Assembly: GCF_000012625.1 (NCBI RefSeq)
Contig: NC_007516.1
Span: forward strand, 1,116,001 to 1,180,000
From: Synechococcus sp. CC9605
GTDB taxonomy: Bacteria > Cyanobacteriota > Cyanobacteriia > PCC-6307 > Cyanobiaceae
Direction of reading: 5' to 3'
Length of the DNA stretch: 64,000 bases
Shown: positions 6,984 to 43,618 of the stretch, in pieces
Layout of the letters: every line of letters begins with the position of its first letter
How positions within the stretch are numbered: the first letter of the stretch is position 1
Program-made: the position numbers and the translations under genes
The notes under the pieces: model-generated
Seen by the model: only the letters and a program-made list of their open reading frames with translations
What the model was told of the DNA's origin: nothing
Databases searched by the model: none

Positions 6984-7253
6984 GTGGAACAGCGCAAAGG
7001 CCAACGACGCGTTCGTGAATTGCGTTGGTTGCACCATGCCTCACGGCTGGTGTTGCAAGGGCAATGTCAGGCCCAAGCCCGATCGGGTGTTGCGGAGCGG
7101 CGATGGGTGCAGCGCCGCAAACTTGCTGCGAATCTGATCAGTCAACGGCCCGTCGGCTGGGCCAGCTCACCAGCGTCTGGCGAGCGCTTCTGGAGGGCAT
7201 TGCGTTTCGGTGGAGCAGGCTTTGCTTTGGCCTGGCTGCTGGCACAGCTTTGA
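6984..7253 (+). CDS. Small basic protein with C-terminal hydrophobic end, unknown
   Basis: An 89-residue frame from GTG 6984. The first two thirds are strongly basic (GQRRVRELRWLHHASRLVL). The end is hydrophobic (FGGAGFALAWLLAQL), which could be a tail anchor. It is divergent from the DUF6439-like gene with 49 bases between starts. No other frame here is convincing. It may be a lineage-specific small protein; function unknown. Confidence 0.5.
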   Translation: MEQRKGQRRVRELRWLHHASRLVLQGQCQAQARSGVAERRWVQRRKLAANLISQRPVGWASSPASGERFWRALRFGGAGFALAWLLAQL

Positions 7254-32256: not shown

Positions 32257-34428
32257 GTGACGGCAACCTTTCTTCTGGAAATCGGCACCGAGGAGCTTCC
32301 TGCTGATTTCGTCCGGCAAGCGCTTGACCAACTGCAGCAGCGGGTTGGTCGTGACCTGCGTGAGGCAAGGCTGGGCCATGGAGTGGTGTCGGTGTTCGGC
32401 ACCCCCCGGCGATTGGTGGTCTCCGTCGCTGAGCTGGAGGACCGCCAACCCGATCTTCAGGAAGAACGCAAGGGTCCTCCCGTGGCTCAGGCCTTCAAGG
32501 AAGGTGTCCCAGGGCCAGCGGCGATCGGTTTCGCCAAGCGCTGCGGTGTTGACCCCTCAGATCTTGAGCAGCGTGACACTCCGAAGGGGCCTTGCGTCTT
32601 CGCAACTGTTCTCACCCCGGGTCAAGCCAGTGTTGAACTGCTCCAGGGGCTGATTCCTCAATGGATTGATGCTCTTCAGGGACGGCGGTTCATGCGCTGG
32701 GGCACTGGAGCCCAGCGCTTCAGTCGCCCCATCCGCTGGCTGCTGGCGCTCAAGGGTTCTGAGCTGATCCCTGTGGTGCTCGATGGTGCTGACCCCGAGG
32801 TCCGCAGCGATCGTTTCAGCCGTGCCCACCGTCTCCATGGTGACGAGCCACTGTCCATTGCATCAGCGGAGCAGTTTGGAGAAACCCTGGCAGCCGCCGG
32901 TGTTGTTGTGGATCGTGCCGAGCGGGCCAAACGGATCCGCACCAGCCTTGATCAGTCGGCTCAGGCCGCCAACGGAACACCCGACTGCCCGGCGTCGCTG
33001 TTCGAAGAACTGGTGGACCTGGTTGAAGACCCAAGGATTCTCGAGGGGACCATCGCTGAGCGGTTCCTGCAGCTTCCCCCGGAGGTGATCAGCACGGTGA
33101 TGCAGGCCCATCAGCGTTATGTGCCGCTGCAGGTGCCTGGTCTGGAGGCAGACCCCCTGCGACTCACTGCTGAGGCTGTGCTTCGTCCCCAGTTCCTTTT
33201 GGTGGGGAACGGATTAGCCCCTGCGTCGACCTTGATCGTTCGCGGGAATGAACGCGTGCTTGGAGCGCGCCTTGCAGACGCCGAATTTTTCCTCGATGTC
33301 GACCGGCGGCAGTCCAGCGCCTCCCGGCGTGAAGCCCTCGATCGTGTCACCTTCGCCGAGGGCCTGGGCAGTCTTCTGGACCGCTCCGAGCGAATCGAGC
33401 GGCTCACGGGCCTGCTGTTGAAGCAACTCGGCCTTGATCAGAGCATGGCGGATGCGGCCCAGCGTGCCGCTCATTTTTGCAAGAACGATCTGGTCAGCCA
33501 GATGGTGGGGGAGTTCCCTGAACTTCAGGGCCTGATGGGGGGCAAATACCTCCTGGAGGAGGGAGAAACCCGAGAAGTCGCCCTCGCGGTAGTGGAGCAC
33601 TATCTGCCCCGGGGAGCCGGTGATGCTCTGCCCGCAACCCCCGCGGGGGCAGTTGTGGCCTTGGCGGAACGGCTCGAGCTGCTGCTCAGCATCTTTGCCA
33701 AGGGAGAGCGACCAACCGGATCCTCCGACCCCTATGCCCTGCGGCGGGCCGGTAACGGTGTGGTGCAGATTCTCTGGGGCATGGCCTGGCGCCTAGACCT
33801 CATGGCGTTCCTGAGCAAGGCCGTGGAGGAGTGGGTTGCTCTGTTCCCAGACTTTGCGGTGGACGCCAGCCAACTGCACAACGACCTCTGTCAGCTAATG
33901 CGGCAGCGGATCGTGTCTCAACTGGAAGACGACGGGTTTGCGCCTGATCTGGTGCAGGCTGTGGCTGGTGATGCCGTCTCCAGCCAGCGTCTGCTCAGTG
34001 ATCCTCTGGATGTGAAACAGCGGATTCAACTGTTGCGTGACCTTCGGGACAGTGGTCAGCTGGATGCCGTTCAGGCGGTGGTGCAGCGGGCAGCGAAGCT
34101 TGCTGAAAAAGGTGATCTGGCACGGGATCAGCTTGTGGCCAGCGATGTAGTTGAGCCCGAACGGTTCGAGTCCGCCAGTGAGAAGGATCTGTTCGCAGCT
34201 CTCGAGCAGCTGCAGCCAATGGCTCAGCAGCGGTCGTATCAGGCCCTTGCCGATGCGCTTGTTGCGGCGACCCCGGCTCTCCAGGCTTTCTTTGATGGAG
34301 AGACCAGTGTGATGGTGATGGTCGACGATTCCGCGCTGCGGCTCAATCGCCTCAACCTGTTGGCGGTCCTGCGCAATCAGGCCTCGGTGTTGGCCGAATT
34401 TGAATCGATTCAAAAGGCAGAGGCCTAA
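32257..34428 (+). CDS. glyS: Glycine-tRNA ligase beta subunit
   Basis: The beta subunit (723 aa) of tetrameric glycyl-tRNA synthetase. It starts at GTG with TFLLEIGTEELPADFVRQAL and contains FMRWGTGAQRFSRPIRWLLA, the KNDLVSQMVGEFPELQGLMG HD-like region, and a C-terminal anticodon-binding domain. The final codons are altered by the element inserted here: after the repeat FESIQ, the tail is KAEA-stop, whereas the far end of the element preserves FESIQSK-stop. The protein should stay functional. Confidence 0.97.
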   Translation: MTATFLLEIGTEELPADFVRQALDQLQQRVGRDLREARLGHGVVSVFGTPRRLVVSVAELEDRQPDLQEERKGPPVAQAFKEGVPGPAAIGFAKRCGVDPSDLEQRDTPKGPCVFATVLTPGQASVELLQGLIPQWIDALQGRRFMRWGTGAQRFSRPIRWLLALKGSELIPVVLDGADPEVRSDRFSRAHRLHGDEPLSIASAEQFGETLAAAGVVVDRAERAKRIRTSLDQSAQAANGTPDCPASLFEELVDLVEDPRILEGTIAERFLQLPPEVISTVMQAHQRYVPLQVPGLEADPLRLTAEAVLRPQFLLVGNGLAPASTLIVRGNERVLGARLADAEFFLDVDRRQSSASRREALDRVTFAEGLGSLLDRSERIERLTGLLLKQLGLDQSMADAAQRAAHFCKNDLVSQMVGEFPELQGLMGGKYLLEEGETREVALAVVEHYLPRGAGDALPATPAGAVVALAERLELLLSIFAKGERPTGSSDPYALRRAGNGVVQILWGMAWRLDLMAFLSKAVEEWVALFPDFAVDASQLHNDLCQLMRQRIVSQLEDDGFAPDLVQAVAGDAVSSQRLLSDPLDVKQRIQLLRDLRDSGQLDAVQAVVQRAAKLAEKGDLARDQLVASDVVEPERFESASEKDLFAALEQLQPMAQQRSYQALADALVAATPALQAFFDGETSVMVMVDDSALRLNRLNLLAVLRNQASVLAEFESIQKAEA
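34398..34413 (+). repeat. attL-like core repeat in the 3' end of glyS
   Basis: ATTTGAATCGATTCAA is identical to 43603-43618. The inner 14 bases (TTGAATCGATTCAA) form a perfect palindrome. It lies inside the glyS coding sequence, 79 bases before the integrase start. It is interpreted as the attachment core created by site-specific integration. Confidence 0.85.
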
Positions 34429-34481
34429 ACCCCAGAACACCATTGACATCAAGGGATCCTGGCTAAGCTAGGGCCTACAAG

Positions 34482-34493
34482 CTGGGCATACAT
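34482..34493 (+). repeat. Candidate integrase arm-site repeat, left
   Basis: CTGGGCATACAT occurs here, 69 bases inside the left core, and again at 43531-43542, 61 bases inside the right core, in the same orientation. Similar placement near both ends suggests recombinase arm sites. It overlaps the integrase start codon by one base, so binding could also affect its expression. Confidence 0.4.
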
Positions 34494-35713
34494 TGGCGAA
34501 CTATCTGACCCGAAGGAAGGGCAGAGACGGCTACTACTTCCAGCGCCGGGTACCGCCTGCACTGGTCGAGGCCATTGGCTGTGCCATGTGGAGACGCAAG
34601 GCCGGCACCACGCTTGCTGAGGCGAAGAGGAACGCCGCCATCTTCATCACTGAGACAGACCAGCTGATCCAAGCGGCCAAGGGAGCGAGCCAGACCCCAG
34701 AGCAGAAGCTTCTGTCTCTACTGCCCAACCGTGAGGAGATCCCAGACGAGATCGATGCTCATGACCTGGTCCATCGGGTAAGCAAGGAGCCCGTCTATTT
34801 AGACGACAAGGGGACAGTCAATCCTGAATACGAACGACTGCACCAACTAGCCACGGGCGTGCTGAAGGGCACAGCAAGACAGGTCCACTCAGCTGATGAC
34901 CTACTTAAACGAGCAACCCTTCTGAAGGATCCAGCACCCGGCACTGTCTTCGAGTGGACCCGCTACATCACCAAGTTGATGGAGCACAGCGGCAGGCAAT
35001 ACATCGAGCAAGTCACCAGGGAAGACGCTCTCTCATGGCGTGCTGATGAGCTGCGTAGGTGCCAAGCATCGACGGTGAAGAACCGGCTACGGCTGCTCAA
35101 TGGATTGTTTGGTGTTGCTGCTGAAGAGGGGTGGTTACAGTCGAACCCCTTCAGTGATCTGACCAAGCGCATCAAGTCGAAGGCCAAGGTCAAGGGAGTT
35201 GTGCTGCTGGACGAATCCGACAACAACTGGGAGAAGCTTCCGCAACTTCACCACCTGCTGTGGCATCTCCTCCGCTGGTCAGGTGCTCACGCTTCAGAGG
35301 TGGGTGGCTTGAGGTGGGAGGACATCGACCTGCATGGAGAGGAGGTGATCCACTTCACGAGCCATGAGACAAGGCCACTGAAGAACGCCTTCAGGGTGAG
35401 GACCATTCCCATCCACACCAGGCTCCTGCCGATCCTCAAGCAAGAGCACCTTGACGAACGATGCGAGGGGTTGATCTTCCCGTGGGCATACAACGAGGCC
35501 AGAGGGAGATGGTGTGAGGGTCTGCACTGGCAGCGCTACCTAGGCATCAGTCCCAAGGCCACAAGAGATTGGGCAGCTACTTGCCTCAGGTCGAAGGACA
35601 TCAATGAGATGGTCATCGGCCGACTGTTTGGCCATAGCCCCAAGACAGTCACCGGAAGGTATGGGTCAGTTGATCTATCAACGATGCGTAAGGCCTTGGA
35701 ACAGCTGACTTAA
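34493..35713 (+). CDS. int: Tyrosine recombinase (phage-type integrase)
   Basis: A 406-residue integrase. The N-terminal YLTRRKGRDGYYFQRRVPPA resembles a DUF6538 arm-binding domain. A SAM-like core-binding domain lies at about 145-235 and the catalytic domain follows. The nucleophile is Tyr in VTGRYGSV, preceded by GHS. The first catalytic Arg position reads His (SGAHASEVGGLRW), and the HxxR box reads KATR. These changes depart from the usual R-K-H-R-H-Y set but occur beside clear att repeats. TTG start; no clear Shine-Dalgarno sequence. Confidence 0.88.
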   Translation: MANYLTRRKGRDGYYFQRRVPPALVEAIGCAMWRRKAGTTLAEAKRNAAIFITETDQLIQAAKGASQTPEQKLLSLLPNREEIPDEIDAHDLVHRVSKEPVYLDDKGTVNPEYERLHQLATGVLKGTARQVHSADDLLKRATLLKDPAPGTVFEWTRYITKLMEHSGRQYIEQVTREDALSWRADELRRCQASTVKNRLRLLNGLFGVAAEEGWLQSNPFSDLTKRIKSKAKVKGVVLLDESDNNWEKLPQLHHLLWHLLRWSGAHASEVGGLRWEDIDLHGEEVIHFTSHETRPLKNAFRVRTIPIHTRLLPILKQEHLDERCEGLIFPWAYNEARGRWCEGLHWQRYLGISPKATRDWAATCLRSKDINEMVIGRLFGHSPKTVTGRYGSVDLSTMRKALEQLT

Positions 35714-35928
35714 ACGAAGTATTGACTGCACCAACGACAGCCTGTGTGTGCCGCCCAATAGATCCATTCGCTGTGATACAGGACCCGATCGCGTATCTCT
35801 TTTGTCACGACGCGAGCACCTGATGAGTTGAGAGCAACGGTGGTGGCTACGACGTGGCTGTCTTCTTGTTTTGGCTTGCCATGCAGATGTATCTCGCAGA
35901 TTGCGTTTTTCCTGAGATTGAAGGCCAA
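35710..35928 (-). CDS. Small protein with C-terminal CxxC motif, uncertain
   Basis: A 72-residue frame ends in EWIYWAAHTGCRWCSQYFV. The part from about residue 25 on looks protein-like (VATTVALNSSGARVVTKEIR). The same C-terminal motif is found in a degenerate copy at 36775-36815 on the same strand, where a TGG codon has become TAG. That argues the frame was coding. A GTG at 35808 would give 32 residues and avoid overlapping the DUF3303-like gene. It overlaps the integrase stop by four bases. Function unknown. Confidence 0.4.
   Translation of the reverse strand: MAFNLRKNAICEIHLHGKPKQEDSHVVATTVALNSSGARVVTKEIRDRVLYHSEWIYWAAHTGCRWCSQYFV
35724..35753. repeat. 30-bp direct repeat, copy 1
   Basis: Identical to 36775-36804. 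Beyond it, weaker similarity continues (AATAGATCCATT against GATAGATCTATT). On the leftward strand it encodes HTGCRWCS at the end of the small CxxC protein. Confidence 0.9.
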
Positions 35929-36198
35929 CTGGCTGCCTACAAGAGCTTCTGTGAGCTGTGGGATTCAGGCGAAATGGCAAAGCTGGATAACTTTGATGGC
36001 TTTGAAATGTTGTTCCGCGTGCATGCTCCTGGCGCAGGCCGAGTGACGATCCTCTTCAAAGCTGAAAGTGATGCTCAAATCTTTGAGCACTTCGCACCAT
36101 GGCGTGCTCAGTTCGGCATTGAAATGGACTTCACTCCTGTTATCGGCTGTCAGGACGTGGTCGATTACCACAAGAAGCTCTTCGCCAAAATGTCCTGA
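35881..36198 (+). CDS. DUF3303-like small protein
   Basis: A 105-residue soluble alpha/beta protein from MQMYLADCVFPEIEGQLAAY. It has a central RVHAPGAGRVTILFKAESDA and an end DFTPVIGCQDVVDYHKKLF. This is the ferredoxin-like pattern of DUF3303, whose function is unknown. Such proteins are frequent in marine picocyanobacteria. ATG 35887 is an alternative start. It is carried within the element as possible cargo. Confidence 0.6.
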   Translation: MQMYLADCVFPEIEGQLAAYKSFCELWDSGEMAKLDNFDGFEMLFRVHAPGAGRVTILFKAESDAQIFEHFAPWRAQFGIEMDFTPVIGCQDVVDYHKKLFAKMS

Positions 36199-36231
36199 TC
36201 TTTTGAAAGGATAATGAACTTAGGGTCGGCG

Positions 36232-36435
36232 TCAGGCTGGCCCTTTTTCTATGTCGTACTTCCGAGTCAGGACAAGCTTTCTGCCCGTTCCGCTGCAGTA
36301 GCTGCAGACGTGCATGTAGCCGTCATATCTGCTCTTCTTGTAACCACTACCTCCGCAGTGCTTGCACTTGTGACTTGTGATCTTGGTATTGAACAAAGGC
36401 AGTGCAATTTGTAGTGCTGTTGCTTCTGATGTCAT
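36232..36435 (-). CDS. Small zinc-finger protein with two DnaJ-type CxxCxGxG motifs
   Basis: A 67-residue protein. CKHCGGSGYKK and CSYCSGTGRK form a pair of CxxCxGxG half-sites, separated by 12 residues, as in the central zinc domain of DnaJ. Four cysteines should bind one zinc. The N-terminus (MTSEATALQIALPLFNTKIT) has no known match. Comparable free-standing DnaJ-like fingers occur on phages and mobile elements. It is transcribed leftward, converging on the DUF3303-like gene. Confidence 0.7.
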   Translation of the reverse strand: MTSEATALQIALPLFNTKITSHKCKHCGGSGYKKSRYDGYMHVCSYCSGTGRKLVLTRKYDIEKGPA

Positions 36436-36524
36436 GTCTTATTTCCAACGACAACTCACCACTAGCTCTGGTCAATCAGCAATTTCAATAGACATAGACT
36501 TAGTAATAACTATCAGTCTCAAAA

Positions 36525-36671
36525 GTGCAGCTTATTGATGACGATTCCCCGAAGGTGCCGAACCCTGCTGATGACTCATTGAGCAGTCCGCAGTCACGGC
36601 GCTATTGGCGCGAGCAGGGTCCTTCCGAGCCAAACCCGCGTGGGTCGTTCGTGCGCGCGTTATTCATCTAG
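36525..36671 (+). CDS. Possible small ORF, uncertain
   Basis: A 48-residue frame from GTG 36525 reads VQLIDDDSPKVPNPADDSLS and ends WREQGPSEPNPRGSFVRALF then I. It is hydrophilic and could be a remnant or a short peptide. It is the only reading in the 397-base gap 36436-36832 that looks at all protein-like. The rest of that gap holds an imperfect hairpin (36729-36752) and the second copy of the 30-bp repeat. Confidence 0.25.
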   Translation: MQLIDDDSPKVPNPADDSLSSPQSRRYWREQGPSEPNPRGSFVRALFI

Positions 36672-36774
36672 CTACGGCAATTTCTCGACCAATCACCTAG
36701 TTCGATAATGACAGTTTTAAACCTGAGTAAAGCCAGTGCCCACCTGGGCTTTAAGTCATGCGTCACATTGCGGC

Positions 36775-36815
36775 GACTGCACCAACGACAGCCTGTGTGT
36801 GCCGACAGATAGATC
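36775..36815 (-). pseudogene. Decayed copy of the CxxC small protein
   Basis: The first 30 bases equal 35724-35753. Read leftward the frame gives LYFQ-stop-IYLSAHTGCRWCS against LYHSEWIYWAAHTGCRWCS in the intact copy, so the tryptophan codon TGG has become TAG. The reading then diverges. Interpreted as a duplicated and inactivated gene end. Confidence 0.6.
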
Positions 36816-36832
36816 TATTGGAAATACAGGAG

Positions 36833-37051
36833 TTACGGGGCATAGGGATCCACATGCGAGCAATAGGCCCAGTGCTTACAGCTCTTCAAGGGAGGAGACC
36901 CAGGAGCCAATAGCCCCTGCCTGAGGTGACACGAGCCGAGGACTTGGCACTGCCCAAGGGTCACGTATCCGAAGTGAGCACAGGTCGCACAGCTCCGGTG
37001 GCCCTTGAAGGATTCCAGGTCCCTGTCATCGACAAAGCCCCAGTCCTCCAT
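36833..37051 (-). CDS. Cysteine-rich small protein, paralogue A
   Basis: A 72-residue protein starting MEDWGFVDDRDLESFKGHRS. It contains CATCAHFGYVTLGQCQVLGSC and a later LKSCKHWAY. It is a paralogue of the gene at 41204-41434, sharing the WGFVDDRDL start and the five-cysteine spacing, which suggests a zinc or iron-sulfur site. AAGGAGG lies seven bases before ATG. A LexA-box-like palindrome sits 13 bases upstream. Function unknown; damage-inducible expression is inferred. Confidence 0.75.
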   Translation of the reverse strand: MEDWGFVDDRDLESFKGHRSCATCAHFGYVTLGQCQVLGSCHLRQGLLAPGSPPLKSCKHWAYCSHVDPYAP

Positions 37052-37064
37052 CAACCTCCTTAGA

Positions 37065-37078
37065 AGTACGTCTGTACT
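37065..37078. promoter_or_regulatory. LexA-box-like operator, site 1
   Basis: AGTAC-GTCT-GTACT is a perfect five-base inverted repeat with four-base spacing. It matches the arms of the cyanobacterial LexA (SOS) box AGTAC-N4-GTACT. It lies just upstream of the ribosome-binding site of cysteine-rich paralogue A, where a repressor would block transcription. Confidence 0.75.
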
Positions 37079-37109
37079 ACTACAGATTGGTCGGGCTTGG
37101 CAATGGTGT

Positions 37110-37664
37110 TCAACGCCTTTGGCTGAGCAGGTCAACTATGCGGAGCATCACTTCCATGGCATCAGCTCTCCGGCGGTCCGTCTCCTCGCGGTCCATCTCG
37201 TACATGGCGATGAATCCATCAATCCTTTTCCGCTGTTCAAGCAGCTCAGTCTTGATGTCGATCTGACCGCCATCGAGGGCATTCAGCTTTCGGTCAGCGA
37301 TCTGGAAGTGGCGCTGTTCGTTCCTGTTCTGGGTTGCAGCGTTCTTGGCCAGACCTTCAATCCTGCGGCTGTCGACTTCGCGCTGATGCTGTTGCGCCTT
37401 CTCAGGGGTGCGTGTTGACCAGAAGTCTTTTTCTTCCTGTGTCTTCAGGCTCCGGTCGATTGCCTCTGGGCGTTGGGGTAATGCGGGGTAGGAGTTCGCG
37501 GAAACGTCGGGGCGGCCGTGTTCGGCTTCCCATTCGCGAATAATCCGCTGCTCTAAGGGTTCATCCCACGGATCGCTTGTGTCAATGATGGGCTCACCAA
37601 TTTCTCGGTGAAAGCGGACCAGCTCCTGAATGGCTGGGTGATTGGGGTTTTTGAAGGTCGGCAT
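37110..37664 (-). CDS. Hypothetical protein, charged and helical
   Basis: A 184-residue protein starting MPTFKNPNHPAIQELVRFHR. An N-terminal segment contains EPLEQRIIREWEAEHGRPDV. The C-terminal half is a long charged helix (TELLEQRKRIDGFIAMYEMD and on), probably a coiled coil. There is no membrane segment or known motif. An upstream continuation of the frame to 37829 looks non-coding. It is transcribed leftward toward the LexA-controlled gene. Confidence 0.65.
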   Translation of the reverse strand: MPTFKNPNHPAIQELVRFHREIGEPIIDTSDPWDEPLEQRIIREWEAEHGRPDVSANSYPALPQRPEAIDRSLKTQEEKDFWSTRTPEKAQQHQREVDSRRIEGLAKNAATQNRNEQRHFQIADRKLNALDGGQIDIKTELLEQRKRIDGFIAMYEMDREETDRRRADAMEVMLRIVDLLSQRR

Positions 37665-37846
37665 GGGCCTCGTATTTGAATTTGTTTTGTTGGGTGTTTC
37701 CGGCGTTACCGGCGTGCGTTCGAGGTTTGATTGCGGCCGTCTCCAGCCCCTGGTCAGCTCAATACCCTGTGATGCGTGGAACATCAGGCTAGTGGCACGG
37801 TGAGACTCAGGCAAGGCGATTGACACCACCCATGGTGTCTCGGGGG

Positions 37847-37996
37847 TCAGTCCAGGGCATTCCTGAGCGCAGCCTTGGCGTCCTCCCTACTTGAGGGGAT
37901 CTTCCAGGGAATAGCGGCGTGGACCTTGGCAACTGCTGTCTGCTTGTAGAGCTGGCCGTAGGTCTTCTGGAGCTGTGCCCGTAGGGTTCCGAGCAA
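37847..37996 (-). CDS. Possible small protein downstream of a terminator
   Basis: A 49-residue frame from TTG 37996 reads LLGTLRAQLQKTYGQLYKQT and continues AVAKVHAAIPWKIPSSRED, ending in AALRNALD. Composition is protein-like. It starts one base after the terminator of the SSB-like operon, so it would need its own promoter or readthrough. It may be the surviving end of a larger gene. The rest of the gap 37665-38026 shows no convincing gene. Confidence 0.4.
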   Translation of the reverse strand: MLGTLRAQLQKTYGQLYKQTAVAKVHAAIPWKIPSSREDAKAALRNALD

Positions 37997-38020
37997 GAAA
38001 AAAGGCCCCCGAAGGAGCCT
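37997..38020 (-). terminator. Rho-independent terminator of the SSB-like operon
   Basis: Leftward, AGGCTCC (38014-38020) pairs with GGGGCCT (38003-38009) around TTCG, with one A/C mismatch, followed by a T run. It lies seven bases past the stop of the SSB-like gene. Confidence 0.8.
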
Positions 38021-38026
38021 GGTGAA

Positions 38027-38467
38027 TCAGAACGGTGCTTCCTCCTCTGGAGGCTCAGCATCAAGTTCGAGCAACCGATCAAGCTGCTCAGCCTCTGGTT
38101 GGGGCGGAGGGGGCAAGACGTTGGACTGCTTCAGCGTGAGCATCGGCAGTTTTTCCAATTCCTGGCTTCCTGCTTCGTTGCCTAGGCGAACCAAGATGTT
38201 GATCAGATAACTCAGCACTGGCCCAGGCTGGTTGTCGAATGGCAGGACCTCCGCACGCATCCGTCGGCCATGGCCGATCAGAAGGCAGCTCACCTCTTGG
38301 CCGATCAAGAAAGTGTTGACCAATCCAAGAGGGAATGTCTGAAGGAATCCATGAACGGGGATTTGACATTCGCCGTCATCGATTTCTCCACGCATCAGCA
38401 CTCCAGGTCCTCTGCCGAACCGCTTGAACTGCCCGATCACCTGGGTGATCTTCACCATCACGATCAT
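38027..38467 (-). CDS. Candidate divergent single-stranded DNA-binding protein
   Basis: A 146-residue protein. The first 105 residues are beta-rich and could form one OB-fold (KITQVIGQFKRFGRGPGVLM, then GQEVSCLLIGHGRRMRAEVL). A proline-rich linker (NVLPPPPQPEAEQ) follows. The last residues are LDAEPPEEEAPF, an acidic tip ending in Pro-Phe like the SSB C-terminus (DDDIPF) that recruits repair and replication enzymes. The N-terminal part shows no obvious match to standard SSB, so this is inference. It is last in a leftward four-gene operon and overlaps the preceding gene by four bases. Confidence 0.6.
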   Translation of the reverse strand: MIVMVKITQVIGQFKRFGRGPGVLMRGEIDDGECQIPVHGFLQTFPLGLVNTFLIGQEVSCLLIGHGRRMRAEVLPFDNQPGPVLSYLINILVRLGNEAGSQELEKLPMLTLKQSNVLPPPPQPEAEQLDRLLELDAEPPEEEAPF

Positions 38468-39075
38468 GATTCGGCGAAAATCTCGGGGGGCAGAAGGACG
38501 TATCCAGCCGCGACCAGGCCAGAGACTTTTGCCTCTCGCCCCACGGCCGCAATGATCTGATTCATCGCGGGGATACAGGGATGCATGGTGCTGCTGTCGA
38601 TCTCGACGTGATCAACTTCACCGTCTCGAACCTCAGTGCTCTCCAATTCATCCGTGGTCTGAGCAGGGTTTTCGAAGACCAGAGGTTTGCTGTCCTTCGG
38701 TGCCAGTGACGGGTCTTGAAGACGTTGAATCACCAGCTCTTTCAGCTCCTCTGGTTGGCGGTCCCAACCTTTGCCACGCAGAAAGTTGCTGTCGGGTTCG
38801 ACGGCAACGTGGCAGTCAAGAGCAAGTTCTAGATAGTGCGGGTCAGGCCAGAACTTGAGATTGAACAAGGCCTGATGTTCCTGCCCTGTGTTGATGTCCT
38901 GGACCGTTGTCCACATCAACTCATGGTCTCTGCCAAATTTGTCGGGGAATCGTCCCCTGCATTTCGTCAGCCTGGCCTTGGTCAAGAGACCAAGAGACGG
39001 AGTTCCCTGCTTGGTTTGGCCGTGATTAGGGAAGGTTCGCTTGCCTGAGCCGCGGAGGCTTTCGAGGATCCCCAT
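38464..39075 (-). CDS. Hypothetical protein in the SSB-like operon
   Basis: A 203-residue protein starting MGILESLRGSGKRTFPNHGQ. AAGGAGG lies eight bases upstream and fixes the start. A possible alpha/beta domain contains HELMWTTVQDINTGQEHQAL. A later acidic segment (ESTEVRDGEVDHVEIDSST) leads to a hydrophobic end with VSGLVAAGYVLLPPEIF. No family is recognised. Its stop overlaps the SSB-like start, suggesting coupled translation and possibly a shared DNA-metabolism role. Confidence 0.7.
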   Translation of the reverse strand: MGILESLRGSGKRTFPNHGQTKQGTPSLGLLTKARLTKCRGRFPDKFGRDHELMWTTVQDINTGQEHQALFNLKFWPDPHYLELALDCHVAVEPDSNFLRGKGWDRQPEELKELVIQRLQDPSLAPKDSKPLVFENPAQTTDELESTEVRDGEVDHVEIDSSTMHPCIPAMNQIIAAVGREAKVSGLVAAGYVLLPPEIFAES

Positions 39076-39076
39076 C

Positions 39077-39241
39077 TCAGTTACCTCCTTGGCCATAGCC
39101 ATGAGTGAGGTCAACGCAGTGGGGACTGCGGAGCTGATGCTGTTGCAAGCGCTGGAGTTGGGCCAACTCGCTGGTGACGTCATAATGGGTACGAGTCACG
39201 AGAGGAAGAACACTTTCGTGCTCTCTTGTGGTTTCGGGCAT
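39077..39241 (-). CDS. Small protein in the SSB-like operon (54 aa)
   Basis: A 54-residue frame starting MPETTREHESVLPLVTRTHY and containing SELAQLQRLQQHQLRSPH, a short amphipathic helix. Its TGA is one base before the next ATG, and that gene's Shine-Dalgarno sequence lies within its last codons. This is typical of translational coupling. The opposite strand also has an open frame here but no ribosome-binding site. Function unknown. Confidence 0.6.
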   Translation of the reverse strand: MPETTREHESVLPLVTRTHYDVTSELAQLQRLQQHQLRSPHCVDLTHGYGQGGN

Positions 39242-39264
39242 GGTTAAAAAGGGTCGTTTATTGA

Positions 39265-39690
39265 CTAACCGTTGTTCTCACTATTGGGCTCAGAGTGATT
39301 GACACCCGTGAACCAGCCGAAAGCATGGGGCTCGCTTTCAAATAGCAGCTTTTGTAGCTGGTAATGATAACGATGGTATTTGGGCGCTGTTTGGCGCATC
39401 TCATGCAGTTGAGCAGAATCAAAATCAGACAAGTTGCCTGTCTGACGAAGGAATTCATCGTTCCTTTTTGATGCTGCTACGTATTGAGCCGTGTTTTCGC
39501 GTGTCGGCGCAGGAATTTCCCGACCGTACGCAAACTCTTGGCGAACATGTTGCATTGCGCCACCACGCTGGGATTCAGTCAGGTCAAGACCCTTTGGGAG
39601 CCTTGTCTGGGAACCTTTCCGATCCTTGATCGGTTCCACCAGGTAGGCGAGAAGATCCAGGTAATTTCCAGCACGACGCAACGGTTCCAT
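39265..39690 (-). CDS. Hypothetical protein, first gene of the SSB-like operon
   Basis: A 141-residue soluble protein starting MEPLRRAGNYLDLLAYLVEP. It is basic and helical in the middle (ESQRGGAMQHVRQEFAYGRE) and ends in a Ser/Asn/Glu-rich tail. The region QLHEMRQTAPKYHRYHYQLQ is unusually rich in aromatic and basic residues, which could fit nucleic-acid binding, but no family is recognised. It is followed after 23 bases by the 54-residue gene. Confidence 0.6.
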   Translation of the reverse strand: MEPLRRAGNYLDLLAYLVEPIKDRKGSQTRLPKGLDLTESQRGGAMQHVRQEFAYGREIPAPTRENTAQYVAASKRNDEFLRQTGNLSDFDSAQLHEMRQTAPKYHRYHYQLQKLLFESEPHAFGWFTGVNHSEPNSENNG

Positions 39691-39833
39691 CCTTTCGAGG
39701 AGAACTTCAGTTACGACAGGCCAGAACGGGCAACCGAATGATCGGCGGCAGGAACCAGGGAGTCAATGATTTTCTACAGAACTTTCTGCAGTTCGTCAAC
39801 GGCCAGGGAGAAAATCTCGTTCATGGCCTCGTC

Positions 39834-39872
39834 TCACCCAGCCTCAGGAGCCCAGCTCACTTGCTTTTCATA
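39834..39872 (-). pseudogene. Fragment of the cysteine-rich family (C-terminal tail)
   Basis: Thirteen codons read YEKQVSWAPEAG-stop, matching the tail WQKAVGWAPEAG of the intact gene at 41204. The rest of the gene is missing. It lies in a loose stretch (39691-40090) where I see no convincing gene. Confidence 0.5.
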
Positions 39873-40090
39873 CGTCATCAATAAAAAAGGACGGGCCCCT
39901 CAGCCCACCCCATACAGACGAATTGAAAGCAGCTCTGCTTCCGAGACAACAATACCAATTACTAGGCATTACTACTTAGCAATAATCATTTTCACTTGGG
40001 TCATAGTTCCGCTGACGCGTGCAGCTCTGCAAACGCGTTGGGAGATGGAAGTGCATGCAGCGGGTTTCCCTCGACCCGCTTCTCCCTGAA

Positions 40091-40258
40091 CTAACCAACT
40101 TCAGGAGCCCAGCCCACTTCCTTCTGCCAGGTGGGTGCTCAGAGCTTGCACCGCTTCTTTAGGTGCTGCCCTTGCTCCAGCTGCTTCTGCCTGAGGTTGC
40201 AGCCAACCATCGTGTGGCAATGCTCATCACCAGTGCAGTAGAGGCAGAAACCGATATC
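40091..40258 (-). pseudogene. Broken copy of the cysteine-rich family
   Basis: Leftward the frame reads CLYCTGDEHCHTMVGCNLRQ and then KQLEQGQHLKKRCKL-stop, followed in frame by APTWQKEVGWAPEVG-stop. The intact gene has W where the first stop occurs (CKLWAPTWQK), so TGG became TGA at 40139-40141. The N-terminal WGFVDDRDL part is absent, replaced by the end of the neighbouring gene. Probably inactive. Confidence 0.7.
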
Positions 40259-40266
40259 TGATCCGT

Positions 40267-40512
40267 TTACTGCCAGTCGCCCTTCACAATTTTCAACTGA
40301 ATGGGAATCTTCGAGTGCACTTCAATCGGGGAATCCAGCAGATGCTTTTCTTGAAATTCGTTGAGTGCGCCGTCTATCAAATCAAAGGCCCTTTTCAATC
40401 TCACCTGCTCCATGTCATCCGCCGTGGACACGCTGGCGTCCTCCAGAACCCGAACGACTGACTCCCAGTTCTCCCTCGAAAGCTCAAGCGTCAATTTGAT
40501 ATCTGCGGTCAT
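40267..40512 (-). CDS. Hypothetical protein (81 aa)
   Basis: Starts MTADIKLTLELSRENWESVV and continues with helices containing EQVRLKRAFDLIDGALNEF, ending KIPIQLKIVKGDWQ. It is a small helical protein without known motif. ATG 40512 is preferred; sequence upstream in frame is not protein-like. Its end abuts the broken cysteine-rich copy, which suggests a recombination junction. Confidence 0.6.
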   Translation of the reverse strand: MTADIKLTLELSRENWESVVRVLEDASVSTADDMEQVRLKRAFDLIDGALNEFQEKHLLDSPIEVHSKIPIQLKIVKGDWQ

Positions 40513-41203
40513 GTGAGTTGGAGTAACGATTGGCGATGAAGTGCAGCAGCAGAGCGCAGTGGCGTGGCCTACGACATCTGGTGCGCCATGAAACCTTGGC
40601 AACGCGACAAGATCACTGCCACACGCAAGGTAGACAAGGACATCCAGCCATTGGTGGAGCGATACACCTGAGCAATGCAGCTTTGAACTGATCGCTCAGC
40701 ACATTTGTGTTGATCAACCCGCTTCGGGAAGCGGATTTTTCGCGGGTTCCCCCGCCCGCGACTCCCGCTTATGCGTTCAGGGAGAGGGAGGCAGCCGTAA
40801 GCCTCCCCTCCGCTAAGGCAAGAAAGACCCCTGGTGGTGTCAGTCCCAGGGGCTGAGCACTCCTCGCCGATTTCAAGTTGATGCACTTGTGTGACCAGGG
40901 TGTGATCGGCAGGCGTCGGATTCATGACCAGGTCCAACTCGCTGGCCAACCCGCCTCAGTAGCAAGTGATGCGTCAGGCCATTGAGTACCAGGGCCACGA
41001 TTGAACTGCTCGCAGTTGTCGCACTTCTGAGAGCGGCGAGGTCACCTCTCGAGGGTAGGGGCTTCGCCTGTCCAAAAAATGAGCCCCCCGCAGCTCTATA
41101 AGAGGAGGCTCGTGTTAATTAACAAGCTGACATTGGCGACTGAATGAAGTTTTGGGTCGTTGAGTCAGTAGGTCCTTACAGATGTTCTGCTTACTCAGCA
41201 TGA
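40513..41203. other. Loose region without confident genes
   Basis: On the + strand, 40564-40671 could encode 35 residues (VAYDIWCAMKPWQRDKITAT and on), which look like the end of a lost gene. A hairpin CCGCTT-CGGG-AAGCGG (40719-40734) followed by ATTTTTC resembles a rightward terminator after it. A leftward open frame at 40569-40949 starts in protein-like fashion but turns low-quality. A second stem pairs GGGGCT (41058-41063) with AGCCCC (41082-41087). Confidence 0.5.
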
Positions 41204-41434
41204 CTAACCCGCTTCAGGTGCCCAGCCAACTGCCTTCTGCCAGGTGGGTGCCCAGAGCTTGCAGCGCTTCTTTAAGTGCTCACCCTGCTGCAGTTGGCGT
41301 TGCCTGAGGTTGCAGCCCACCATCGTGTGGCAGTGCTGGTCGACTCCGTAGGTGAAGTGCTGGCAGGTCATGCAGACCACGCCTCCCTTCCAGTTCTGCA
41401 GGTCTCTGTCATCTACGAAGCCCCACTCTTCCAA
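41204..41434 (-). CDS. Cysteine-rich small protein, paralogue B
   Basis: A 76-residue protein from TTG 41434 with the family start EEWGFVDDRDLQNWKGGVVC. It has cysteines in CMTCQHFTYGVDQHCHTMVGC and RCKLW, and the tail WAPEAG. The five-cysteine pattern CxxC...C-x5-C...C matches paralogue A. AGAGGTG precedes the start, and a LexA-box-like palindrome lies 18 bases upstream. A small metal-binding protein is likely; function unknown. Confidence 0.7.
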   Translation of the reverse strand: MEEWGFVDDRDLQNWKGGVVCMTCQHFTYGVDQHCHTMVGCNLRQRQLQQGEHLKKRCKLWAPTWQKAVGWAPEAG

Positions 41435-41452
41435 GTGCCAGCACCTCTAATC

Positions 41453-41466
41453 AGTACAGCTGTACT
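41453..41466. promoter_or_regulatory. LexA-box-like operator, site 2
   Basis: AGTAC-AGCT-GTACT is a perfect palindrome with the same arms and spacing as the site at 37065-37078. It lies between cysteine-rich paralogue B and the ribbon-helix-helix-like gene upstream. Two such sites in front of two paralogues are unlikely to be chance. Confidence 0.75.
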
Positions 41467-41497
41467 AGCAGGGGTGAGGAAGGCTTTGCAACGAAGT

Positions 41498-41893
41498 TCA
41501 GGAACCCAGCAGCTCCATCAGCAGCTTGAGCTTCTGAAGCTTCTCCTTCTGGACGCCACCAAGGTTGTCGATGTCGTCAGCTGCCATCTTCAGCAGCCTG
41601 TCTGTCGGGTTCTTCTTCAGGGCTTCTTGAACAGCTGCACTGTCTTTGGAGGTGACTACGTCTCCATCGGATGAAGGTGCCAGCACTGGTGGTTCGATTC
41701 CCTCGTCCTTGAGCCGCTTCTTCTGAGTCTTGATGGCGTCTTCAACAGCCACCCGGAACCACTGGCTGATGGTGCGCCGGTCATAGCGAGCCATCTGCTG
41801 GGCCTCCTCATAGAGGGCCATGGGGATGTTCACTGCCACCCGCTTGGTTCTGACTGGGTTGACCGGCACGACAGGTGAATCAACCAAGCACAC
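41498..41893 (-). CDS. Ribbon-helix-helix-like DNA-binding protein
   Basis: A 131-residue protein. TKRVAVNIPMALYEEAQQMA followed by RYDRRTISQWFRVAVEDAI fits the strand-helix-helix pattern of CopG/Arc repressors. A linker of about 40 residues leads to a charged C-terminal helix (KEKLQKLKLLMELLGS). The start is placed at GTG 41893 because the frame beyond it is antisense to the better gene at 41927. It is divergent from the rightward cluster and may repress it; this is inference. Confidence 0.6.
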   Translation of the reverse strand: MCLVDSPVVPVNPVRTKRVAVNIPMALYEEAQQMARYDRRTISQWFRVAVEDAIKTQKKRLKDEGIEPPVLAPSSDGDVVTSKDSAAVQEALKKNPTDRLLKMAADDIDNLGGVQKEKLQKLKLLMELLGS

Positions 41894-41926
41894 CCAGCTT
41901 CCTGCTGGTGCTTTGGAGTACCCGCG

Positions 41927-42223
41927 ATGACTGCTGAGAAGTTCTCCCTCGACCCAAACATGACGACCTCCGCTGAATGGCATGAAGCCAGGGCGGAGGA
42001 GCGGAAGGAGATGGGTGTCTATTTCGGGGACCGAGTCTCCGTGAAGAGTGGATCTAAACCCCAGGGCAAGTCCAAGGAGGTAGAGGGTCCAACCCTGAAG
42101 CCCTATCCCCAGACACTCAACGTTGCCCGGACCGGACACGAACCCGTCAACAACAAGCCGACTCGCCACAAGGCTCCCACCCTCAACCAGCTCAACAAGA
42201 GACGCAGATCCCATCCCTCTTAA
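41927..42223 (+). CDS. Hypothetical basic protein, first of rightward cluster
   Basis: A 98-residue hydrophilic protein starting MTAEKFSLDPNMTTSAEWHE. The C-terminal half is Lys/Pro/Asn-rich (NNKPTRHKAPTLNQLNKRRR). GGAG lies eight bases before ATG. It is divergent from the ribbon-helix-helix gene (33 bases apart) and followed five bases later by the next gene. Likely intrinsically disordered; no known family. Confidence 0.6.
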   Translation: MTAEKFSLDPNMTTSAEWHEARAEERKEMGVYFGDRVSVKSGSKPQGKSKEVEGPTLKPYPQTLNVARTGHEPVNNKPTRHKAPTLNQLNKRRRSHPS

Positions 42224-42228
42224 TTCTT

Positions 42229-42450
42229 ATGTCTACCCCTGCTCAAATCTTCTACCCAGTTCCCAACCGGACTGGGCTCTACAACCGAGAGCGTGACCTT
42301 GAGACAGCGTACGCCGTCGATAAAGGCACCGCTGATCGGATCGAAGCTCAGATCGAGCTAAGACGTGGCAACTCAGAACGAGTGAAGAACCTCGTGATCG
42401 CAAAGATCTCCAGCGGTGGTCTCTATGTCAATGAGATCCAGGTCGGCTGA
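42229..42450 (+). CDS. Hypothetical protein of rightward cluster
   Basis: A 73-residue soluble protein, MSTPAQIFYPVPNRTGLYNR at the start, with a helix AYAVDKGTADRIEAQIELRR and an end of predicted strands (VIAKISSGGLYVNEIQVG). No recognised family. It is placed five bases after the preceding stop, so the two are probably co-transcribed. Confidence 0.6.
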   Translation: MSTPAQIFYPVPNRTGLYNRERDLETAYAVDKGTADRIEAQIELRRGNSERVKNLVIAKISSGGLYVNEIQVG

Positions 42451-42500
42451 TCGGTTTCCTTGACCCGTAAACACCGCTTTTCATTTCCCACAACAACAAC

Positions 42501-42674
42501 ATGAAGATCATCCGTCTCAAACGGAGTGGCAGACCTACGGGTCAGATAAAGCTATCCAAGATGTTGAACACCGGCACACCCCAAGTTGATGTTCTGGGCG
42601 GCGTCGCGATGCTGCTCGATCATTACAAGGTTTGTGCCCACATATCTCAATACGAAGCACATGGACTTACCTAG
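42501..42674 (+). CDS. Small protein of rightward cluster (57 aa)
   Basis: Starts MKIIRLKRSGRPTGQIKLSK and contains GTPQVDVLGGVAMLLDHYK. It is basic at the start and small. It overlaps the next start by 14 bases, in keeping with a compact phage-like cluster. No family is recognised. Confidence 0.5.
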   Translation: MKIIRLKRSGRPTGQIKLSKMLNTGTPQVDVLGGVAMLLDHYKVCAHISQYEAHGLT

Positions 42675-42813
42675 TCTCCAAGCGGCTTACCTCGAAGTTT
42701 GTTTAAGCCTTGATAGTGCCGGCAAGTCCTCTCTATCTAAACAACAGGAAGCTGCTTTGTCGTTGGCCAAGTATCTCATCAAGACCAAGAACAACGATGC
42801 CAAAACCAAATAA
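42661..42813 (+). CDS. Small protein of rightward cluster (50 aa)
   Basis: Starts MDLPSLQAAYLEVCLSLDSA and ends in a lysine-rich helix (LAKYLIKTKNNDAKTK). It overlaps both neighbours (14 and 17 bases). Composition is protein-like; function unknown. An in-frame ATG at 42586 exists but runs through the preceding gene. Confidence 0.5.
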   Translation: MDLPSLQAAYLEVCLSLDSAGKSSLSKQQEAALSLAKYLIKTKNNDAKTK

Positions 42814-43039
42814 CAACAAGGTCACAGAGTCTCAGGCCGCTGAAGTACACGCATTGACCGTGCAGATCCTTGAGCTCCAGGCCAAACAGATGCTGTTGAC
42901 CGGAGAGATCGATAACGCTGGTGTTCGCAACATGCTCACGTACCTGAAGCAACAGGACGTGACTGTTGATCCTGAAGAAGATCCCGGCACTATCAGCCTT
43001 GTGAAGGCTCTCAAAGAGATCGACCTCAACTACCTCTGA
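42797..43039 (+). CDS. Possible small terminase subunit-like protein
   Basis: An 80-residue protein starting MPKPNNNKVTESQAAEVHAL. A helical region, ILELQAKQMLLTGEIDNAGV then RNMLTYLKQQDVTVDPEEDP, resembles the LxxGEIDxAxxRxxLxxLK pattern I associate with small terminase (maturase) proteins of T7-like cyanophages. Satellites often carry only the small subunit, to redirect a helper's packaging. The match is by eye and weak. It is the last gene of the cluster, followed by a hairpin. Confidence 0.4.
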   Translation: MPKPNNNKVTESQAAEVHALTVQILELQAKQMLLTGEIDNAGVRNMLTYLKQQDVTVDPEEDPGTISLVKALKEIDLNYL

Positions 43040-43048
43040 CGTTCAGCA

Positions 43049-43083
43049 CCCCCTCTCCTCCGCCTTTGGCGTCCTCGAGGGGG
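43049..43083 (+). other. Strong hairpin after the rightward cluster
   Basis: CCCCCTC (43049-43055) pairs with GAGGGGG (43077-43083), enclosing an inner CGCC-TTT-GGCG stem. There is no T run. It may be a factor-dependent terminator or an RNA 3' end stabiliser. Confidence 0.5.
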
Positions 43084-43602
43084 AAGCCCTCAGACACCTC
43101 TGTAACCCTCTGTAGCAAGAGTGCAACCCTTGCGCGCTAGATCATCTATCGGAGCCGAGACCGGCCTTGTAGGGCGATCTGAAGGGGCTCAGAGTGAAAA
43201 TGACCCAAATTTCCAAGACCTGTACCTATACGCGTGGCGGCGAACTTCCCCCATAGCTACCCCCTGCTCGCAGCAATCAGGCCGGCAGGGGTCATGGGAA
43301 AGGCTGGGGTAGGTCCAGATCGATCGATGGGGGAGGGGCTAGGGCCCAGACCACTTGCTACGGCTGGCCGTGTGACGAAACAGATGAATCGATCAATGGT
43401 CAGTGCAGGCCTGGCTATCCCTCGAGATCCATTGGTACGACTGGGTTAGCGATAGGTCGGCCGCTGTTGCGAATGGCCGGGCTCGCGTATTCCTCATCTA
43501 CTCCTACTCATCTGTTGAAGGCGGTTTTGACTGGGCATACATCGTGGGCTTACACGATCAGCGAGACCCGTCGCAAACACTAGAGTCTTAGCCATGCCGA
43601 CG
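43084..43602. other. Right end of element, no confident gene
   Basis: About 520 bases with only short, unconvincing open frames on either strand. It contains the right copy of the CTGGGCATACAT repeat (43531-43542), the candidate recombinase arm site. It may hold binding sites, a packaging site or decayed sequence; nothing more can be supported. Confidence 0.5.
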
Positions 43603-43618
43603 ATTTGAATCGATTCAA
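43603..43618 (+). repeat. attR-like core repeat
   Basis: Identical to 34398-34413. In the frame of glyS this copy reads FESIQ and continues SK-stop (TGA at 43625-43627). This looks like the original glyS end displaced by the insertion. Confidence 0.85.

What the first reader, a model, noticed from the sequence alone, without database searches (positions are those of the whole stretch)
34493..43039. Candidate damage-responsive phage satellite of a new type
The element combines an integrase, LexA-box-like operators, an SSB-like protein in a leftward operon, a divergent small DNA-binding regulator, and a rightward cluster of tiny genes ending in a possible small terminase subunit. It has no visible capsid, portal, tail or large terminase gene. 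This recalls phage-inducible islands and related satellites, which are little described for marine cyanobacteria. Most gene products have no family I recognise.
Basis: inference. Interest (0 to 1): 0.78.

Follow-up and report, generated by a model that had tools for sequence, protein, structure and literature searches.

The report
Cyanobacterial island likely hijacking T7-like phages
A 9.2-kb mobile element sits in the end of the glyS gene of a marine Synechococcus and carries its own phage-type packaging gene but no recognisable capsid genes, so it probably travels by hijacking T7-like viruses that infect these cyanobacteria.

Summary
The element is real and larger than reported: window 34398-43618 (9,221 bp). 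It is bounded by a 16-bp direct repeat found only twice in the 2.51-Mb genome; five of five relatives tested have an uninterrupted glyS-to-chlP junction there. It encodes a tyrosine integrase, a ribbon-helix-helix regulator and an 80-aa protein matching T7-type small terminases (PHROG_891, E=1.1e-5). No capsid, portal, tail or large-terminase gene was recognised. terS and about 490 bp of noncoding DNA behind it are conserved (86-88%) at other sites in two other Synechococcus genomes. One sister element also carries a diverged T7-like RNA polymerase. Related polymerase loci, mostly with integrases, occur elsewhere in the family; two encode C-terminal parts of a T7-type scaffolding protein. A Syn5-type large terminase was not found in the window's genome or either sister genome. 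The LexA boxes are real but stand before two members of a genus-wide LexA-linked gene family; induction is untested. The SSB-like assignment is unproven. Best reading: a satellite that an infecting T7-like cyanophage packages, directed by the element's own TerS; a new variant of phage satellite. There is no induction, packaging or virion evidence.

The parts
34398..43618 (.). whole element, attL to attR
   Evidence: 16-bp repeat found exactly twice in the genome; joined flanks align without a break to 5 of 5 relatives tested; 54.6% GC, below all 74 same-size windows outside it
34398..34413 (+). attL core ATTTGAATCGATTCAA, within the last codons of glyS
34482..34493 (+). CTGGGCATACAT, candidate integrase arm site (left)
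   Evidence: only two copies in the window, one inside each end; role inferred
34493..35713 (+). tyrosine integrase with DUF6538 N-terminal domain
   Evidence: PHROG_1 E=3.2e-28; DUF6538 over cut-off
35724..35768 (+). 45-nt repeat copy 1, just after the integrase gene
   Evidence: 91% identical to copy 2; similar DNA in the G225 element
35881..36198 (+). DUF3303 protein, possible cargo
   Evidence: Pfam DUF3303 E=7.3e-15
36232..36435 (-). zinc-finger protein, possible cargo
   Evidence: PHROG_3931 E=1.9e-7, PHROG_6060 antitermination Q-like E=6.4e-7; DnaJ_CXXCXGXG below cut-off
36775..36819 (+). 45-nt repeat copy 2
36833..37051 (-). Cys-rich protein of a genus-wide LexA-linked family
   Evidence: 90% identical to its counterpart in the G225 element; LexA box upstream
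37065..37078 (.). LexA box AGTACGTCTGTACT
37110..37664 (-). orphan protein of the leftward operon
   Evidence: no Pfam match over cut-off
38027..38467 (-). SSB-like candidate, unproven
   Evidence: acidic ...EEEAPF tail; five predicted strands at pLDDT 43; no Pfam or NCBIfam match
38464..39183 (-). orphan protein of the leftward operon
   Evidence: no Pfam match; 3 weak hits besides itself in 400 genomes
39265..39690 (-). orphan protein of the leftward operon
   Evidence: no Pfam match
40267..40512 (-). small orphan protein
   Evidence: no Pfam match
41204..41434 (-). second Cys-rich protein of the LexA-linked family
   Evidence: family in 31 of 34 genus genomes
41453..41466 (.). LexA box AGTACAGCTGTACT between the RHH and Cys genes
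   Evidence: identical box at the same place in the G225 element
41498..41893 (-). ribbon-helix-helix regulator
   Evidence: RHH_5 below cut-off; 76% identical to counterparts in both sister elements
41927..42223 (+). first gene of the rightward operon
   Evidence: 69% over 48 aa to a gene of polymerase element L081
42229..42450 (+). small gene of the rightward operon
   Evidence: ORF only; no family
42501..42674 (+). small conserved gene before terS
   Evidence: 78-86% identical in the sister elements
42661..42813 (+). small conserved gene before terS
   Evidence: 88-92% identical in the sister elements
42797..43039 (+). terS, T7-type small terminase subunit
   Evidence: PHROG_891 E=1.1e-5, residues 3-76 of 80; hhalign to phage TerS E=3.7e-5; third-position changes dominate
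43040..43529 (.). conserved noncoding right end, candidate packaging/replication site
   Evidence: conserved with terS in three genomes at different sites; role inferred
43119..43131 (-). one copy (1 mismatch) of AGGGGTTGCACTC, repeated in the G225 element
   Evidence: role unknown
43531..43542 (+). CTGGGCATACAT, candidate integrase arm site (right)
   Evidence: role inferred
43603..43618 (+). attR core; frame runs on as the displaced glyS end FESIQSK*

Best explanation
A 9.2-kb integrative phage satellite. Shown: it lies in the 3' end of glyS between two 16-bp cores and gives glyS a new tail (KAEA where relatives have SK or SN). Inferred: its integrase excises it at those cores. Host SOS (two LexA boxes) and an RHH regulator control part of its genes. 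When a T7-like cyanophage infects, the element's own TerS recognises a site in the conserved noncoding right end and brings the element's DNA to the helper's large terminase, so that it is packed into helper capsids. The particle delivers it to a new cell, where it inserts in glyS. A sister element adds its own T7-type RNA polymerase, and more distant relatives add scaffold-derived domains that could alter helper capsid assembly.
For: Exact att repeat, only two copies in the genome; uninterrupted site in 5 of 5 relatives tested. TerS by PHROG_891 E=1.1e-5, with the G225 copy at 6.6e-5, and by hhalign E=3.7e-5. No structural gene or TerL recognised. The terS-plus-noncoding module is conserved in 3 of 34 genus genomes at different sites, with terS changes mostly at third codon positions. 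The G225 sister carries a T7-like RNA polymerase, E=3.5e-90. A Syn5-type TerL is absent from G000, G225 and G249, so a helper would have to come from outside. Among 14 related polymerase loci none shows portal, MCP, tail or TerL in the stretch fetched and 11 have an integrase-like ORF, 10 of the 11 borne out by PHROGs; two encode scaffold-derived domains.
Against: No virome or phage relative was found. TerS identity to phage TerS is only about 25% and hhalign probability 71; a phage-only TerS HMM gives just E=0.05-0.34 for the three copies; Pfam DNA_Packaging_2 is below cut-off; the fold search was uninformative. The window element has no polymerase or scaffold, and its leftward operon is orphan. 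The TerL test used one query (Syn5). The left border of the G225 element was not found. Induction, excision and packaging are untested.
Confidence: 0.66

Rival explanations
1. A decayed remnant of a T7-like prophage that has lost most genes and no longer moves.
For: terS, and in relatives the polymerase and scaffold domains, are T7-phage gene types. The own-genome polymerase locus L068 has its polymerase in two ORFs, and G304 holds only a partial TerS, so decay does occur in the group.
Against: Intact att cores and integrase; terS under purifying selection; the same end module at different sites in three genomes; 14 of 16 polymerase loci fetched lack portal, MCP, tail and TerL alike.
Confidence: 0.13
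2. An ordinary integrative cargo element, the TerS match being misassigned; it spreads by other means such as random transduction.
For: The TerS match is modest; it carries possible cargo (DUF3303, zinc finger); no virome relative was found.
Against: Two profile methods point to TerS; terS is conserved together with noncoding element-end DNA; the sister element and relatives carry further T7-type genes.
Confidence: 0.14
3. A TerS-type satellite whose helper is not T7-like (for example a cyanomyovirus or cyanosiphovirus).
For: Identity to the cyanopodovirus TerS compared is only about 25%, and no phage record shares the packaging-end DNA.
Against: PHROG_891 and DNA_Packaging_2 point to T7-type packaging (that the latter is the T7 gp18 family is recalled); the sister polymerase and the relatives' scaffold domains are T7-type.
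Confidence: 0.07

Closest known systems
TerS-type SaPIs/PICIs (phage-inducible chromosomal islands)
   Same: Integrase at one end, own TerS, no TerL or structural genes; SaPI TerS redirects packaging to the island's own pac site (passages of PMC10690885)
   Different: T7-type TerS, RHH regulator, insertion in glyS; no PICI-type primase or replication gene recognised; LexA boxes in the element
PICMIs (Vibrionaceae)
   Same: Small marine satellites of virulent phages without capsid-remodelling genes (abstract start)
   Different: Other hosts; its text has no mention of terminase, whereas this element carries TerS; no shared gene was tested
Tycheposons
   Same: Tyrosine-recombinase element of picocyanobacteria, within the stated 4-200 kb (passages of PMC10872708)
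   Different: No tRNA in the window; described there as cargo transposons with tRNA borders. Original paper not held
VEIMEs (virion-encapsidated integrative mobile elements)
   Same: Marine satellites with integrases (passages)
   Different: Defined by presence in virions, which is not shown here. Original paper not held
T7-like cyanophages Syn5 and P-SSP2
   Same: They have the gene types found spread over these elements: RNA polymerase, head-assembly/scaffold and TerS, and in Syn5 an integrase
   Different: The elements lack portal, MCP, tail and TerL; the G225 polymerase is only 24-27% identical to theirs

Membership tests
Site-specific integrative element | tyrosine integrase plus direct-repeat att sites and an empty site in relatives | tested here: met
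Phage satellite (general) | phage packaging gene present, structural genes and TerL absent | tested here: met
   TerS by PHROG_891; no structural or TerL match among the ORFs scanned
Phage satellite (general) | mobilised in helper virions | not testable with these tools
   needs infection; viral-contig scans found nothing
PICI/SaPI | own TerS (pac-type SaPIs) | tested here: met
   T7-type, not the SaPI type
PICI/SaPI | PICI regulators (stl/alpA) and pri-rep replication module (features recalled) | tested here: inconclusive
   no such Pfam, NCBIfam or PHROG match, but most proteins are orphans
cfPICI | own capsid, portal, TerL and TerS (passage of PMC10690885) | tested here: not met
   no capsid, portal or TerL match
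Tycheposon | tRNA gene at the border (passage of PMC10872708) | tested here: not met
   no tRNA or tmRNA in the 64-kb window; site is the glyS 3' end
Tycheposon | tyrosine recombinase of the tycheposon clade | not tested
   reference sequences not at hand
VEIME | recovered from virions | not testable with these tools
   no virion data; viral contigs gave no match
T7-type small terminase (PHROG_891) | profile match over most of the protein | tested here: met
   residues 3-76 of 80, E=1.1e-5; G225 copy E=6.6e-5
T7-type small terminase | fold like known TerS | tested here: inconclusive
   three-helix model, pLDDT 77.6, no telling match
LexA regulon (cyanobacterial) | box RGTACNNNDGTWCB / AGTACWNWTGTACT before the gene (passages of PMC3091678) | tested here: met
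   two boxes fit RGTACNNNDGTWCB exactly; 7 AGTACNNNTGTACT places in the genome. LexA binding not tested
SSB (38027-38467) | SSB profile or OB fold | tested here: inconclusive
   no Pfam or NCBIfam match; model pLDDT 43

The most novel reading that the evidence does not exclude
Marine picocyanobacteria carry an undescribed superfamily of integrative satellites of T7-like cyanophages, built from exchangeable modules of T7-phage type: an own TerS with a right-end packaging/replication site (window, G225, G249), an own T7-type RNA polymerase with element-specific repeated promoters (G225 and others), and scaffold-derived domains that could redirect capsid assembly (L072, L078), with host SOS wired in through LexA boxes.
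Probability: 0.45. Interest if true: 0.88.

Novelty: new variant of a known kind. Interest (0 to 1): 0.74.

Why it matters
T7-like cyanophages infect marine Synechococcus and Prochlorococcus, which carry a large share of ocean photosynthesis (general knowledge). If integrative satellites parasitise these viruses, they would affect viral mortality and gene transfer in the sea. They would also be satellites that bring their own T7-type packaging specificity and, in a sister element, their own RNA polymerase. If the genome-size match to CC9605 holds, the element lies in a culture strain, and T7-like phages of close hosts such as Syn5 exist in culture, so the claim is directly testable.

Tried and rejected
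Phage and virome relatives: tblastn of TerS and of ORF 38464-39183 against phages gave only hits with E of 3 or more; 3 of the 21 TerS hits lie under genes annotated as Vibrio phage terminase small subunit, at E 3-4, too weak to use. Viral-contig scans with TerS, integrase, the G225 polymerase, the end motif and the TerS alignment gave none. Blastn of the terS-plus-noncoding module against phages gave none.

Relatives of ORF 38464-39183: 3 weak hits besides itself in 400 genomes. Two (G177, G209) lie among ordinary chromosomal genes and were rejected; the third (G307) was fetched but not judged. A genome-contig scan gave none.

SSB idea: PDB sequence search and a single-sequence model did not settle it. 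TerS fold searches were uninformative: 0 viral matches at E up to 0.001; PDB second look Z up to 7.3, to unrelated helical proteins.

Cys family as a mobile-element marker: rejected; 1 of 30 loci has an integrase within about 1.5 kb. In the window's genome one copy (1536298) does lie beside an integrase (1535667-1536176).

Syn5 promoter (letters recalled) in the window: 2 matches at up to 3 mismatches against 1.2 expected; rejected.

Left att of the G225 element, and a repeat for the L081 element near a tmRNA gene: none found. Those borders are unproven.

My first guess that the 272-aa G225 protein is a scaffold failed (hmmsearch E=0.48; no scaffold PHROG). A short G225 ORF gave E=9e-4, too weak to claim. 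The L081 and L070 candidates had no match.

Defence genes: two weak PADLOC hits only, E 0.006-0.008, among 10 proteins. Rfam: no match in the window.

I then scanned the integrase-like ORFs: PHROGs bears out 10 of the 11 loci and not L071.
Full report
What is there. The window is G000:C1:1116001-1180000 of a one-contig genome of 2,510,659 bp. The size fits Synechococcus sp. CC9605 (2.51 Mb, CP000110; passages of PMC2441476); that identity is my inference. Between glyS and chlP (gene names by my reading of the ORFs) lies a stretch of 54.6% G+C, below all 74 equally long windows outside it (56.3-63.2%). It is bounded by ATTTGAATCGATTCAA at 34398-34413 and 43603-43618, a sequence present exactly twice in the genome.

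Empty site. In four of the five closest relatives the same exact core ends glyS in a single copy, followed by SK or SN and a stop (L013-L016; L012 lacks the exact core). The window's joined flanks align without interruption to five of five relatives tested, 82-90% over about 1,320 bp. In the window glyS ends ...FESIQKAEA*, and FESIQSK* lies at attR. The element thus replaced the last glyS codons with its own. No tRNA or tmRNA lies in the window. CTGGGCATACAT occurs once inside each end and nowhere else in the window; it may be an integrase arm site.

Genes. The integrase (34493-35713) matches PHROG_1 at E=3.2e-28. A ribbon-helix-helix regulator (41498-41893) is divergent from the rightward genes. 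The last rightward gene (42797-43039) matches PHROG_891, terminase small subunit, E=1.1e-5 over residues 3-76 of 80. Pfam DNA_Packaging_2 gives 14.5 bits against a cut-off of 27.5. The three-member alignment against three cyanopodovirus-type TerS gives hhalign E=3.7e-5, probability 71; a phage-only HMM gives only E=0.05-0.34. No capsid, portal, tail or large terminase was recognised. Most leftward genes are orphans. The SSB-like assignment rests on an acidic tail and a poor model.

Relatives of the packaging end. TerS is in 3 of 300 family genomes. With the alignment it is 5 of 400 at E up to 0.01; one of these is a partial copy without integrase or polymerase in the 11.7 kb fetched (G304), and one is marginal (G251, E=0.005). 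As DNA the module is in G000, G249 and G225, 86-88% identical over about 1,045 bp, 3 of 34 genus genomes; G304 shares only 59 bp. G249 corresponds to a Synechococcus metagenome-assembled genome, CAJXPL010000032.1. The module runs through two small genes, terS and about 490 bp of noncoding DNA. In G225 and G249 it stops within a few bases of the stop codon of a different host gene. terS differences between the three copies fall mostly on third codon positions (2/0/10, 7/2/20, 5/2/13). I infer that this end holds TerS and the DNA site on which it acts.

The G225 element. It reaches from G225:C1:677485 to at least an integrase ending near 693450, about 16 kb. Its left border was not found. It shares the RHH gene (76%), a Cys gene (90%) and an identical LexA box with the window. 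It encodes a 957-aa single-subunit RNA polymerase (PHROG_414 E=3.5e-90), about 22-27% identical to the phage enzymes listed. A motif AGGGGTTGCACTC recurs on one strand: five copies at up to 2 mismatches, three exact, plus one copy with 2 mismatches on the other strand. The window and G249 ends carry one copy each. At up to 1 mismatch none occurs in the window flanks or in 7 other polymerase loci searched. Twenty 16-mers recur three or more times in this element against 0, 0 and 3 in three shuffles; some are not this motif. It is a candidate promoter or origin, untested.

Wider group. The polymerase has matches in 25 of 300 family genomes. I fetched 16 contexts from 16 of them, the window's own genome included. 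Two (L073, L080) are T7-like phage or prophage DNA with other phage genes. The other 14 show no portal, MCP, tail or TerL at E up to 1e-3 against Syn5 and P-SSP2 proteins in the 6-20 kb fetched, and 11 of 14 have an integrase-like ORF; PHROGs bears out 10 of these 11, not L071. A Syn5-type TerL is found in 4 of the 25 genomes (one of them broken) and not in G000, G225 or G249. L072 encodes a protein with two stretches matching the C-terminal half of head-assembly/scaffold profiles (PHROG_1052 E=1e-15, PHROG_1018 E=1.7e-12), and L078 a fusion ending in the same region (E=1.8e-7). The first gene of the window's rightward operon has a homologue in polymerase element L081 (69% over 48 aa), which in turn matches genes of the corresponding operon in G225 and G249. 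So the window element is tied by genes to this group, although it has no polymerase itself.

LexA. Two perfect boxes precede the two Cys-rich genes. The genome has 7 places matching AGTACNNNTGTACT, reversed control 0; 0.03 would be expected in 9.2 kb if they were spread evenly (my arithmetic). Another precedes genes that I recognise as umuDC (by eye). The motif forms are those reported for cyanobacteria (passages of PMC3091678). The Cys family occurs in 31 of 34 genus genomes. Of 30 loci fetched, 27 had a full-length start; in the 80 nt upstream 19 of 27 have a box at up to 1 mismatch and 26 of 27 at up to 2, against 87 and 125 of 5,400 random 80-nt windows of the same loci. One of 30 loci has an integrase within the locus. 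This is a genus-wide LexA-linked family that the element also carries. It ties the element to SOS but does not show that mobilisation is SOS-driven.

Mechanism. Shown: precise insertion, restored glyS frame, conserved TerS-plus-noncoding end, no recognised structural genes, no Syn5-type TerL in the host genome, real LexA boxes. Inferred: excision on damage or infection, TerS steering a helper's TerL to the element end, packaging in T7-like virions, reinsertion in glyS.

Comparison and novelty. It works most like a TerS-type PICI. Membership of a known satellite family was not established: the tRNA border of tycheposons and the capsid genes of cfPICIs are not met; PICI regulators and replication genes are inconclusive. 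The paper searches listed no title on T7-like satellites in cyanobacteria; of the papers listed I saw only listings, abstract starts and, for eight, passages. The tycheposon and VEIME papers are not held, so I do not claim that it is unpublished. I rate it a new variant of a known kind.

Noticed in passing
window 36833-37051 and 41204-41434; loci L110-L139: A family of small Cys-rich proteins, in 31 of 34 genus genomes, has a LexA-like box 12-35 nt before the start in 26 of 27 full-length copies examined (up to 2 mismatches): a little-known LexA-linked family of marine Synechococcus.
   Followed up: partly
L068 (G000:C1:739500-759400): The same genome has another element-like locus with an integrase and a T7-like RNA polymerase split into two ORFs.
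   Followed up: partly
L072:6102-6812 and L078:5764-6534: Proteins with the C-terminal part of T7-type head-assembly/scaffold profiles, in two stretches in L072 and fused to another domain in L078, in polymerase loci without recognised capsid genes: possible capsid-assembly interference.
   Followed up: partly
window 35724-35768 and 36775-36819: A 45-nt repeat (91%) brackets the DUF3303 and zinc-finger genes, as if a cargo block had been inserted after the integrase gene.
   Followed up: no
window 40090-40224 and 39838-39866: Fragments resembling the Cys gene region at 41203-41337 (86% over 135 nt; a shorter third copy): gene duplication and decay inside the element.
   Followed up: no
L081:15190-15654: A tmRNA gene lies at the integrase end of the polymerase element L081, a possible insertion site; no direct repeat was found.
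   Followed up: partly
L046:4057-4072, 4606-4621, 5165-5180, 7181-7196: Copies of the motif AGGGGTTGCACTC on one strand of the G225 element, a candidate promoter of its own RNA polymerase.
   Followed up: partly
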